Source: an uncultured Lachnospiraceae bacterium
GTDB lineage: Bacteria; Bacillota; Clostridia; Lachnospirales; Lachnospiraceae
Direction: 5' to 3'
Assembly (NCBI GenBank): GCA_949502235.1
Contig: CATBDC010000005.1
Location: 1 to 64,000 of the forward strand
Length of the DNA: 64,000 bases
Shown here: positions 1 through 19,610 of the stretch, one piece after another
Numbering within the stretch: position 1 is the stretch's first letter
How the letters are laid out: the number at the start of each line of letters is the position of its first letter
Notes under the pieces: model-generated
Seen by the model: the letters and a program-made list of their open reading frames with translations, nothing else
What the model was told of the DNA's origin: nothing
The model's database searches: none
Translations under genes and position numbers: made by a program

Positions 1-131
1 ACTGAAAAAATCTCCATCTGTGCTGCTGGAACATCATTTTCGATGCACAGGAAGGGCATCTTAAAACTTCCGTCCCTCGAACGATATTCCAACCGTACAG
101 GTAGAAATTTTTCTATCTGTACAGTTTTCAG
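1..131. repeat. MITE-like element B, 'empty' copy (truncated by window start)
   Basis: Sequence gatgcacaggaagggcatcttaaaacttccgtccctcgaacgatattccaaccgtacaggtagaaattt recurs as the reverse complement at 18870-19133 (with an insert) and partly at 19318-19362. Confidence 0.75.
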
Positions 132-1110: not shown

Positions 1111-1302
1111 ACAAGACAGGCAACAGTGTGTGTCTGTTAAAGTGTTGAAATAAGGGAGTGCGCCGGTATGCATTGTCTTATGGAGCTTTCAGGAGGGGTT
1201 GTGCAGTGAAACCTCAAACCGGCTTAAGCAGATTGTCCTGTGCGGGTTCATCTGCTGAAAGAAAATGCTCAAAAAGTCCCTGCCTGGCGGCGGGGACTTT
1301 TA
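1111..1302 (+). ncRNA. Putative structured leader RNA or independent small RNA upstream of the PBECR4 gene
   Basis: Starts after the consensus promoter; predicted stems ATAAG/CTTAT, CTTTCAG/CTGAAAG, AGCAGAT/ATCTGCT; ends in a GC-rich terminator-like hairpin. Confidence 0.5.
1272..1302 (+). terminator. Terminator-like hairpin
   Basis: AAAGTCCCtGCC-TGGC-GGCgGGGACTTTTAT. Confidence 0.65.
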
Positions 1303-13593: not shown

Positions 13594-13616
13594 AAATCTG
13601 TTGAAAAGTTTCCGCC

Positions 13617-13692
13617 TGTACACTCCAGTGAACTAACCGCTAACTACGACTAAGGAGTTTGGGAGAGCCTTCACTCCTTAGTCGTAGTTATT
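13617..13692 (+). repeat. Structured element C, partial copy 3
   Basis: cactccagtgaactaaccgctaactacgactaaggagtttgggagagccttcactccttagtcgtagtta; 18-bp perfect stem 13641-13690. Confidence 0.8.
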
Positions 13693-13989
13693 CCTTCTCC
13701 TAAGAAAAAATTAAGTTGTATTTTTATTACATCTGTGTTAAAGTGAATTCACAAAGTTCGTTCAGCGAATTTTAAAATCTATATATTTCCCTGGCGGGGA
13801 TATCAGTGGTGTGTTACATTGTCTGGAAATATCAATATTTCCCGGAACTATTATTTTTTACTCCTTATTTTTTATTGTTTGTTGTGAAAAAAAATTATAT
13901 AATGGAGACATAAGAGTGAATGAAAGAAAACAATTAAATACAGCAAACCAGAGCTTCTACTAAATAAAACGAGAGTAAGAGTAATAATC

Positions 13990-16535: not shown

Positions 16536-17702
16536 ATGTCAAAGAGAGTATTTCTAATTGTATTAGACAGTGTAGGTGCCGGAGAGGCACCCGATGCAGA
16601 TAGATTTGATGATGTGGGCTGCGACACTCTGGGCACCTGTGTAAGGAGCGGAAATCTCCATGTCCCAAATCTTGAAAAGCTGGGACTTTATCATCTGGAC
16701 GGCACCTCTTTCAGGAAGGAAGACAGCAAGCCGGAGGGCTGTTATGGAAAAATGACGGAGAGATCCGCAGGAAAGGATACAACGGTAGGACACTGGGAGA
16801 TTGCCGGTATGGTATCAGAACAGCCCATGCCCACCTATCCGGGCGGATTCCCAGCGGAGGTTATGGAAGCTTTTGAAAAGGCTGTGGGCCGGGGCACCTT
16901 ATGCAACAAGACTTACTCCGGGACAGAGGTCATTAAGGACTATGGAAAGGAGCATGTAGAGACAGGAAAGCTGATCGTCTATACCTCAGCGGACAGTGTA
17001 TTTCAGATTGCTGCCCATGAGGAGGTAGTGCCCCTTCAGGAGCTTTATGAAATCTGCCGGAAGGCACGCGGTATCCTTCAGGGAAAGTACGGGGTAGGAA
17101 GAGTAATTGCCCGTCCGTTTGTAGGTGAGTACCCGGATTATACACGTACGGTGAACCGCCATGATTTTTCTCTTGAGCCGCCGAGGGACACCATACTGGA
17201 TGCCCTGAAAAAGGAGGGGCTTGCGACAATCGGGGTAGGTAAAATTTACGATATATTTGCGGGAAAAGGAATTCAGGAGACCTATCCAAATGAAGGTAAT
17301 AAGAAAAATATGGAGAGGACCATAGAACTTCTGGATAAGGAATTTAAAGGACTGTGTTTTGTGAACCTGGTGGATTTTGACATGATTTACGGACACCGCA
17401 ACGATATTCCGGGTTATGTCCGTGCGCTAAACGAAGTGGATGTGCAGCTCGGAGAATTTATGGAGAAGATGGGGCCAGAGGATCTTCTGATCATTACTGC
17501 GGATCACGGCTGTGATCCGGGATTCAAAGGGACGGATCACAGCAGAGAATACACGCCGTGCCTGTGCTATGGAAAACAGCTTAAGAAGGGTGTAAATATG
17601 GGAATCCGCACAAGCTTTGCGGATATTGCCGCGACGATTGCAGAATATCTTGGTGCAGATTATAAGGGGGACGGAGAAAGTTTCTTTGCGCTTATCTCCT
17701 GA
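16536..17702 (+). CDS. deoB: Phosphopentomutase
   Basis: VFLIVLDSVGAGEAPDADRFDDVGCDTLGT; ITADHGCDPGFKGTDHSREYTPCL. Confidence 0.96.
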   Translation: MSKRVFLIVLDSVGAGEAPDADRFDDVGCDTLGTCVRSGNLHVPNLEKLGLYHLDGTSFRKEDSKPEGCYGKMTERSAGKDTTVGHWEIAGMVSEQPMPTYPGGFPAEVMEAFEKAVGRGTLCNKTYSGTEVIKDYGKEHVETGKLIVYTSADSVFQIAAHEEVVPLQELYEICRKARGILQGKYGVGRVIARPFVGEYPDYTRTVNRHDFSLEPPRDTILDALKKEGLATIGVGKIYDIFAGKGIQETYPNEGNKKNMERTIELLDKEFKGLCFVNLVDFDMIYGHRNDIPGYVRALNEVDVQLGEFMEKMGPEDLLIITADHGCDPGFKGTDHSREYTPCLCYGKQLKKGVNMGIRTSFADIAATIAEYLGADYKGDGESFFALIS

Positions 17703-18777
17703 CCCAGCCTGCTCTTGTTGTTTTTCCGTGCATATTCCAGAAAGCGCCGCATATATTTATCATTCTGCAGCCGGTATTGATTGCGTAATAGCGGCTGCAG
17801 CTTTCGGCTCTTAAAACCGCATCCCTCCAGCAGGTTCCCATATACAGGGTAAAGGCTAGAGAAGCTGTAAAGGAAAAAAGCCATCTGTCCCACAGGAGCC
17901 CAAAGATGAGTGTCAAAAGACATGTATAAGCAAAGGAAAAGAAAATGGCGTGCCCCTCTTTTAACCGGCTGTCCTGTTTATTTACCAGATAGCAGAAAAG
18001 TGCCGCGTATATAAGAAGCATGATAAAGAGCATACTTAAGTGCAGCCGGTCAGGCGTTTTAATGTTCACTCCGGAAGGCTCTAAAAGCATCTGGAAAAGG
18101 CGATATACGCTGGCGGTCAGAGGTGCCAGAATAAGTGCTGATATATGGAAGAAAAGGATGTGTAATTTTATGTCTGCCGTAAAATATACACCCATATAAC
18201 AAATACTTCCAATGACAGCGGCCGCAAAGATCAAGCCGATACATCCTGTTTCAGAAATATGCATAAGATAACTGCCGAATAATCCGGTGATGGCTATATT
18301 TATCAGATATCCCCATAAAAGCATGATAAGTATATTCTGGTTAAATTGTTTTTTGGTTAATTTCTCTTTTGTAGTGTCTTCATGCATGATTTTTTCGAGA
18401 CATGTTTTCCAGTTTCCGCTATTTACATCTATAAGTGATTCATTTACTTCCGAAAATGGAATATCATTTTGGAGAATTGTCTCACATATTTGCCTGACTT
18501 CCAGAAGACTTTGTTCTTCCTCCTGAAGTTTTTTCAGGCGTTTTTCCATGACGTCCTTAAAAAGGAGCTGTCCATTGTTTAATTGTCGGATTTCCAGAAT
18601 GGATATTCCAAGAAGCCGTAATGTTTTAATTCGTTCCAGACATTTTATGTCCTCGGGAGAATATTCACGGTAATTATTTTCTTCATTGCGATCAGGAGCC
18701 AGCAGACCCTCCTTCTCATAATAACGGATATTTGCTTTTGTGATACCCAGCAGATTTTCCACCTCTTTTATTTTCAT
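17692..18777 (-). CDS. MerR-family regulator with C-terminal membrane domain
   Basis: MKIKEVENLLGITKANIRYYEKEGLLAPDRNEENNYREYSPEDI; hydrophobic C-terminal half. Confidence 0.85.
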   Translation of the reverse strand: MKIKEVENLLGITKANIRYYEKEGLLAPDRNEENNYREYSPEDIKCLERIKTLRLLGISILEIRQLNNGQLLFKDVMEKRLKKLQEEEQSLLEVRQICETILQNDIPFSEVNESLIDVNSGNWKTCLEKIMHEDTTKEKLTKKQFNQNILIMLLWGYLINIAITGLFGSYLMHISETGCIGLIFAAAVIGSICYMGVYFTADIKLHILFFHISALILAPLTASVYRLFQMLLEPSGVNIKTPDRLHLSMLFIMLLIYAALFCYLVNKQDSRLKEGHAIFFSFAYTCLLTLIFGLLWDRWLFSFTASLAFTLYMGTCWRDAVLRAESCSRYYAINTGCRMINICGAFWNMHGKTTRAGWVRR

Positions 18778-18869
18778 CAGATTTACCTCCCTTTTCACAG
18801 CATTTTCCTGTGTTTTGTTATTATAATAATAAGGGGTGAAGTAGGTTGAATGTCAATAGATTAAAGAAA

Positions 18870-19133
18870 TTTTCTACCTGTACGGTTGGAATATCGTTCG
18901 GGGGACGGAAGTTTTCAGATACCCTTCCTAACGCAGACTGGGCAACACTCCGGTGAACTAACCGCTAACTACGGCTTAAGGAGTTCAGGAGAGCCTTCAC
19001 TCCTAAGTCTTCGTAAGCGGTGGATTTCACCTCCGTTAAGAGCGCCCCTGATGTCTGCTTATAGGAAGGGCATCTGAAAACTTCCTGTGCATCGAAAAGG
19101 ATGTTTCACCAGCACAGATGGAGATTTTTCCAG
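18870..19133. repeat. MITE-like element B, 'occupied' copy
   Basis: Reverse complement of the window-start element with element C inserted at 18930-19062; imperfect terminal inverted repeats. Confidence 0.8.
18930..19062 (+). ncRNA. Structured element C, copy 1 (candidate structured RNA or cruciform)
   Basis: Nested pairings GCAGAC/GTCTGC, GGGC/GCCC, GGTGA/TCACC, CCGCT..GGAGT/ACTCC..AGCGG with loop TCAGGAGAGCCTTC; homologous to 19160-19290 in inverse orientation. Confidence 0.6.
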
Positions 19134-19159
19134 TACACAGGCAGTTCGGGACAGTTCTT

Positions 19160-19290
19160 CCCCTAAGCAGGCGTTAAAAGGGCGTCCTTAGCGAAGGTGA
19201 GATCCACGATTTACGAAGACTTGGGAATGAAGGCTCTCCTGAATTCCTTAGTCGGAGTTAATCGTTAGCTCACCGGAGCGCTGCCCTGCC
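19160..19290 (-). ncRNA. Structured element C, copy 2
   Basis: Same nested pairings with changed bases (CAGGC/GCCTG, GGAAT/ATTCC, ACGATT/AATCGT); loop TCAGGAGAGCCTTC retained; flanked by CAGTTCGGGACAGTTCTTCCCC/GGGGAAGAACTGCCCCGAACTG. Confidence 0.6.
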
Positions 19291-19610
19291 TGTGTGGGGA
19301 AGAACTGCCCCGAACTGCCGTCCCTTGAATAATATTCCAACCGTACAGTTGGAAATTTTCATCTTGCCGAACCTGAAATTCTGTGATATTCTAAGGAAAG
19401 AATAAAAAGGAAAGGGATGAAAGGATGAAGAATATTTCTTGCTAATCAGAAATGTAACTGTACAGCTTACTTTTGCGGTGGTATTTATGGTATGATCTGC
19501 CGTTTGTTTGCTGTGCCGGCAGCAGGAAATTCTTTATCCGTATTCCATGTATAGAGTCAGTGCGTCTCTCTAAGAAATAGAATTGCAGCCAGGTTCTCAG
19601 GGAGTGATAC

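What the first reader, a model, noticed from the sequence alone, without database searches (positions are those of the whole stretch)
18930..19290. Multi-stem structured element (C) in two inverted copies with compensatory base changes and a conserved apical loop
On a common strand both copies fold the same way: GCAGAC/GTCTGC (copy 1) or CAGGC/GCCTG (copy 2), GGGC/GCCC, GGTGA/TCACC around the central arm, then a long hairpin whose base is CCGCT../..AGCGG in copy 1 and ACGATT/AATCGT in copy 2, with neck GGAGT/ACTCC versus GGAAT/ATTCC. The loop TCAGGAGAGCCTTC is identical in both. The flanking outer arms are unrelated between copies (TTTTCAGATACCCTTCCT/AGGAAGGGCATCTGAAAA versus CAGTTCGGGACAGTTCTTCCCC/GGGGAAGAACTGCCCCGAACTG), yet each pairs with itself. 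Pairing kept while sequence changes is the signature of a selected RNA or single-strand-DNA structure. I cannot assign it to a known class by reading.
Basis: partly seen in the sequence, partly recalled or inferred. Interest (0 to 1): 0.85.

Follow-up and report, generated by a model that had tools for sequence, protein, structure and literature searches.

The report
Structured hairpin repeat inside mobile element
The window holds a short mobile DNA element made of two facing copies of a large, previously unlisted hairpin motif that is scattered in dozens of copies through many gut Lachnospiraceae genomes, often right after the ends of genes, and whose stems stay perfectly matched although their sequence differs at every site.

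Summary
Both copies fit one structure, and 42 diverse relatives give overwhelming covariation (28 of 33 pairs changed on both sides). Rfam has no match. In the window the two copies are the halves of a 478-bp palindromic MITE-like element (18875-19352) with inverted ends and an 8-bp direct repeat. It has at least 7 near-full-length sister copies and 54 core matches in its own genome.

The core also stands alone in about 9% of Lachnospiraceae-family genomes (27-50 copies in fully scanned ones) and was seen nowhere else. Each solitary unit has its own unrelated stem arms, usually 33-37 bp and nearly mismatch-free. G·T and A·C mismatches are equally rare, so base-by-base RNA pairing is probably not what keeps the stem. 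One unit rewritten as a perfect palindrome with an inverted spacer points to DNA template switching. Units sit preferentially just behind the stop codon of the gene on their own strand (62 versus 10 on the mirror side), and neighbours face each other (47 versus 0 back-to-back).

Best reading: a REP-like 3'-end hairpin family, kept paired by template switching and captured by a MITE in this genus. Its function is inferred, not shown.

The parts
18867..18874 (.). left copy of the 8-bp direct repeat AAATTTTC (probable target-site duplication)
   Evidence: similar 8-bp repeats AAACTTTT and AAAGTTTT flank copies L015 and L053
18875..18908 (+). left terminal inverted repeat (TACCTGTACGGTTGGAATATCGTTCGGGGGACGG)
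18903..18906 (+). GGAC, conserved 5' boundary of unit 1
   Evidence: boundary profile of 95 units anchored on GGAC; sequence
18907..18939 (+). unit 1, left arm (33 nt)
   Evidence: arm-length distribution
18940..19047 (+). unit 1, conserved core (copy 1)
19048..19085 (+). unit 1, right arm including the conserved TGAT-type bulge
19086..19096 (+). unit 1, 3' boundary motif TGTGCATCGAA (family consensus TG....TTGG)
19130..19139 (-). unit 2, 3' boundary motif TGTGTACTGG on the minus strand
19142..19179 (-). unit 2, 3' arm
19180..19286 (-). unit 2, conserved core (copy 2, inverted)
19287..19319 (-). unit 2, 5' arm; GTCC (GGAC on the minus strand) follows at 19320-19323
19318..19352 (-). right terminal inverted repeat
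19353..19360 (.). right copy of the 8-bp direct repeat AAATTTTC
13615..13716 (+). degenerate solitary core, 22 nt behind the stop codon (13593) of a sense-strand ABC-permease-like gene
49..107 (-). terminal-repeat fragment of the same MITE family without a core

Best explanation
The core is the tip of a family of about 190-nt extragenic hairpin units (5' GGAC, a unique arm of usually 33-37 bp, a conserved 107-nt core with fixed internal loops, the complementary arm, 3' TG....TTGG) dispersed through Lachnospiraceae chromosomes. SHOWN: the anatomy, copy number, covariation, lack of wobble bias, facing orientation of neighbours, preference for the position just behind the stop codon of the sense-strand gene, exchange of tips between loci, and, in the window's genus, capture of two units in a TIR/TSD-flanked MITE that spread. 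INFERRED: the arms stay paired mainly because replication template switching recopies one arm from the other; the internal loops survive because something binds or uses them; solitary units act at mRNA 3' ends as REP-like hairpins (termination or 3'-end protection); and the MITE copies spread through an unidentified transposase acting in trans.
For: MITE: inverted ends, 8-bp direct repeat, 7 other near-full-length copies at 88-91% identity, 54 core matches in the own genome, no ORF of 80 aa or more inside. Family: R1 hits in 35 of 397 family genomes and, in a phylum-wide sample of 399, only in 2 genomes of the own family; 27-50 copies in four fully scanned genomes. Structure. Arms: 125 loci, median 33 WC pairs, lengths mostly 33-37, G·T 46 vs A·C 55; core G·U 42 vs A·C 168 (40 vs 71 without one conserved A·C pair) among 5464 WC cells. 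Template switch: unit in L154 (G152) is a perfect palindrome with inverted spacer, while the related unit L208 721-831 (G443) keeps loops and bulges. Tip exchange at matching loci L189/L206, L191/L207, L163/L214, L186/L216. 3' position: 62 sense stop codons within 100 nt of the core start versus 10 on the mirror side. Orientation of neighbours within 3.5 kb: 47 facing, 0 back-to-back, 4 tandem. Template switching as a way to create and maintain hairpins is described in PMC8794818.
Against: No expression data. 3' boundaries lack the U-tract of an intrinsic terminator, and the terminator comparison was weak (0/57 between stop and unit, 7/57 after it, controls 25/114). Co-directional neighbours were nearly strand-balanced in the first, smaller count (21 vs 19) and only mildly unbalanced in the larger one (58 vs 44). 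The window's own MITE sits between divergently transcribed genes, not at a gene end. No transposase for the MITE was found. Gene calls were heuristic ORFs and the loci come from rather few genomes, some of them orthologous.
Confidence: 0.5

Rival explanations
1. Purely mobile DNA: the unit is the substrate of an unidentified transposase that acts on the hairpin as single-stranded or cruciform DNA. It inserts next to gene ends by preference and has no host function; conserved loops are enzyme-recognition features.
For: Very high copy numbers, restriction to one family, no wobble bias, fixed outer boundaries GGAC and TG....TTGG, strict facing orientation of neighbours. A long RAYT-like Y1 ORF occurs in 10 of 19 carriers against 2 of 15 non-carriers.
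Against: No core lies beside any of the RAYT-like genes fetched (one IS200-type locus, L236, happens to hold a core). All 10 G152 loci tested still match flanks in G443, and no clean empty site was seen. Arms differ completely between copies whose cores are 75-85% alike, which simple copying does not give.
Confidence: 0.27
2. Independent structured non-coding RNA: each unit is an RNA gene or cis-regulator whose paired arms are kept by selection on RNA folding.
For: Strong covariation and conserved internal-loop nucleotides; sense-strand bias at gene 3' ends.
Against: G·U is no commoner than A·C in arms or core, although an RNA tolerates G·U; arms are far longer and more perfect than RNA selection needs; no Rfam match.
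Confidence: 0.13
3. Spacer-like memory or guide: the fixed-length unique arms are acquired sequences that target foreign or host DNA.
For: Arms are unique, mostly 33-37 bp, between fixed motifs.
Against: 31 arms gave no match in 50,697 phage records; matching loci in G152 and G443 and in G002 and G003 keep the same arms; units are dispersed, not arrayed.
Confidence: 0.03

Closest known systems
REP / BIME extragenic palindromes of enterobacteria and pseudomonads
   Same: Dispersed, extragenic, multi-copy palindromes, often at 3' ends of genes, frequently as facing inverted pairs; a RAYT-like gene is present in half of the carriers checked.
   Different: Unit of about 190 nt instead of 20-40 nt, with a large core of several conserved internal loops and locus-unique arms; no RAYT gene flanked by units found; different sequence.
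MITEs (non-autonomous insertion-sequence derivatives)
   Same: Window element: inverted ends, 8-bp direct repeat, no ORF of 80 aa or more, many near-identical copies.
   Different: Its interior is two units of an older structured repeat that also exists alone, without these ends, in other genera; no parental element found.
Structured RNA families of Rfam
   Same: Conserved secondary structure with compensatory changes.
   Different: No Rfam 15 family matches; almost no G·U pairs; very long unique perfect arms.
Integron attC sites
   Same: Imperfect hairpins where structure rather than sequence is kept.
   Different: In attC, from general knowledge, the ends are conserved and the tip variable; here the core is conserved and the outer arms vary; dispersed, not arrayed.

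Membership tests
MITE | terminal inverted repeats | tested here: met
   18875-18908 and 19318-19352; many TIR hits in the genome
MITE | target-site duplication | tested here: met
   AAATTTTC on both sides in the window; AAACTTTT and AAAGTTTT in two other copies, unclear in the rest
MITE | no coding capacity, multiple near-identical copies | tested here: met
   no ORF of 80 aa or more inside; 7 other near-full-length copies at 88-91% identity
MITE | a parental transposase element with the same ends | tested here: inconclusive
   two TIR pairs 1.6-2.0 kb apart carry no transposase; the list of TIR places was cut off
REP/BIME with RAYT | short 20-40 nt palindrome with GTAG/GGAG foot | tested here: not met
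   unit is about 190 nt, boundary GGAC
REP/BIME with RAYT | RAYT gene flanked by the repeats | tested here: not met
   no core within about 2 kb of the RAYT-like genes fetched
REP/BIME with RAYT | extragenic, 3'-end-biased, inverted pairs | tested here: met
Known Rfam RNA | match above the curated score | tested here: not met
Functional RNA structure | covariation with tolerated G·U pairs | tested here: inconclusive
   covariation met, G·U excess not met
Intrinsic terminator | GC-rich hairpin followed by a U-tract | tested here: not met
   3' boundary consensus TG....TTGG
Integron attC site | conserved outer ends with variable central part | tested here: not met
   the reverse pattern: conserved core, locus-unique outer arms

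The most novel reading that the evidence does not exclude
A new class of hairpin mobile elements: an unidentified enzyme recognises the looped core as single-stranded or cruciform DNA, and the unique fixed-length arms are made anew at each insertion by copying a short stretch of DNA into an inverted repeat.
Probability: 0.13. Interest if true: 0.85.

Novelty: new variant of a known kind. Interest (0 to 1): 0.6.

Why it matters
It is a large, apparently undescribed repeat family (27-50 copies in each of four fully scanned genomes, about 9% of sampled Lachnospiraceae-family genomes) that includes a cultured species, Blautia schinkii. It is a natural test bed for the claim that DNA template switching, not RNA selection, can produce textbook 'compensatory' covariation: G·U and A·C intermediates are equally rare, and one unit was caught rewritten as a perfect palindrome. 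If the units set mRNA ends, they would be part of gene-end architecture in major gut bacteria.

Tried and rejected
Rfam at gathering and relaxed thresholds: only chance human lncRNA hits over the element. Search for an autonomous transposon between TIRs 1.6-2.0 kb apart: ordinary genes inside. Interiors of widely spaced unit pairs (1-3 kb): ordinary host genes such as methionine aminopeptidase and glycosidases, no transposase. RAYT hypothesis: a Y1_Tnp search found long RAYT-like ORFs near proS/glyS in 10/19 carriers versus 2/15 non-carriers, but no units beside them. Spacer hypothesis: 31 arms against phages, no match. Plasmids and phages carry no relative. Empty-site search in G443 for ten G152 loci: no clean empty site; two loci had lost the tip by 83-87 nt deletions. 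The window's site in the sister genome G005 matches only from the element's right end, because the neighbouring MerR-type gene is also absent. The first arm alignment was too lenient and was replaced by a stricter one. Literature searches found no description of the family; that library lacks most subscription papers.

Full report
OBSERVATION. Both copies fold far better than shuffled sequence. A covariance model of the motif finds them at 18940-19047 (+) and 19180-19286 (-), with a degenerate third copy at 13615-13716. The model was built from 42 diverse cores taken from several genera: 33 pairs, 28 of them with changes on both sides, 96.8% of cells paired against 30-46% when the partner is slid, and 229 double-changed cells against 61.5 in shuffles. 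Rfam 15 has no family for it, either in the window or in 14 loci mostly from other genera.

WHAT IT IS IN THE WINDOW. The two cores are halves of a 478-bp element, 18875-19352. Its ends are inverted repeats (TACCTGTACGGTTGGAATAT...) and it is flanked by the 8-bp direct repeat AAATTTTC (18867-18874 and 19353-19360). Two further copies show AAACTTTT and AAAGTTTT as direct repeats; in the rest the repeat is unclear. Seven other near-full-length copies at 88-91% identity and 54 core matches occur in the same genome. No ORF of 80 aa or more lies inside. This is a MITE-like element. No parental transposase was found.

THE FAMILY OUTSIDE THE MITE. In other genera, and at solitary sites of the window's own genus, the core stands without these ends. 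35 of 397 sampled genomes of the family carry it. A phylum-wide sample of 399 gave only two carriers, both of the own family. Four genomes scanned fully hold 27, 34, 40 and 50 matches. A pattern scan of GTDB representatives returned only records labelled Lachnospiraceae, member genera or unresolved Clostridia/Eubacteriales, including the cultured Blautia schinkii DSM 10518.

ANATOMY OF A UNIT. A typical unit reads GGAC, arm, core, complementary arm, TG....TTGG. The core carries fixed internal loops: CUNCG/CUNCG twice, CUAAG/CUAAG, CUA/GGAU, UAAC/GUAA (by inspection). The apical hairpin varies in length, to more than 60 nt in some genera. The arms are unrelated between most loci of the same genome, yet usually 33-37 bp long and nearly mismatch-free (95 units; 125 loci, median 33 Watson-Crick pairs). 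A few are much longer (L095: 130 pairs).

RNA OR DNA. If RNA folding kept the pairs, G·U should be tolerated and A·C not. In the arms G·T/T·G cells number 46 and A·C/C·A cells 55. In the core they are 42 and 168, or 40 and 71 without one pair that is a conserved A·C, against 5464 Watson-Crick cells. Wobble is thus under 1% and not favoured, and pair types change (for example C-G, T-A, A-T, G-C at one position) without G·U intermediates. DNA replication template switching, which copies one arm from the other, predicts this, and it has been proposed as a source of RNA hairpins (PMC8794818). One unit shows it directly: in L154 (genome G152) the unit has become a perfect palindrome whose spacer is the inverted form of GCTAACTTC, while the related unit in G443 (L208, 721-831) keeps all loops and bulges. 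At matching loci of G152 and G443 the arms are kept but the tip is exchanged as a block on both sides (L189/L206, L191/L207, L163/L214, L186/L216), as ectopic gene conversion would do. Two other loci lost the tip by 83-87 nt deletions. That the internal loops persist despite such perfecting events implies that they are used by something; this is inference.

POSITION AND ORIENTATION. Of 176 loci with gene calls, the gene on the unit's 5' side runs in the same direction in 108. Its stop codon lies within 100 nt of the core start in 62, typically leaving 10-40 nt between stop codon and GGAC; on the mirror side only 10 genes end within 100 nt. Divergent gene pairs are avoided (17). Neighbouring units within 3.5 kb face each other in 47 of 51 cases and are never back-to-back; about 15 of these are copies of the window's MITE and a few loci are counted twice, so independent cases are fewer. 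Between convergent genes this follows if each gene carries its own unit behind its stop codon; it does not by itself explain pairs spaced over whole genes. The window's third copy follows the rule (stop 13593, core start 13615, same strand); the window's MITE does not, lying between divergently transcribed genes. No intrinsic terminator was recognised between stop codon and unit in 57 cases, and 7 of 57 had one after the unit, against 25 of 114 control gene ends; this comparison is weak.

BEST EXPLANATION. The units work like REP/BIME sequences: dispersed hairpins at gene 3' ends, probably acting on mRNA ends. They are not members of that family (unit size, boundary and RAYT linkage tested and not met). 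Their pairing is maintained largely at DNA level. In the window's genus two units were captured between transposon ends and the resulting MITE spread. The MITE anatomy and the family are shown; 3'-end function, the binding partner and the transposase are inferred.

LIMITS. Genes are heuristic ORFs. Loci come from few genomes and include orthologous copies. Copy counts are truncated at nine scored candidates per genome. No transcript data were available, and the literature library is incomplete.

Noticed in passing
window 1140-1273 (+): drum RNA (RF02958), 86.8 bits, the only Rfam match in the window.
   Followed up: no
window 6382, 13990, 14701, 19660, 45980 (+); 48189, 60866 (-): A second, unrelated 27-bp palindromic repeat GTTACTGTGAACGGAGTGAACAGTAAC, seven copies with at most 3 mismatches in 64 kb (none expected by chance); also seen beside units elsewhere (L012, L032).
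   Followed up: partly
L242 1892-2329 and L240, L243, L245-L254: A long RAYT-like Y1 transposase gene, often beside prolyl- or glycyl-tRNA synthetase genes, in 10 of 19 unit-carrying genomes against 2 of 15 others; apparently truncated (145 aa) in the window's own genome.
   Followed up: partly
L095, L092, L091, L073 (genome G031): Units with inverted-repeat arms of 73-130 bp instead of about 35, and tandemly repeated arm segments (L092, L043).
   Followed up: no
L186 versus L108 and L216: The left flank of a G152 unit matches one G443 locus and the right flank another, so a genome rearrangement has a breakpoint at the unit.
   Followed up: no
L225 739-1719: Three units in direct tandem followed by one inverted unit, with partly shared arms, as if by recent local duplication.
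   Followed up: no
window 17692-18798 (-): MerR-type regulator gene fused to a membrane-like domain next to the element; gene and element are both absent at the matching place in sister genome G005.
   Followed up: partly
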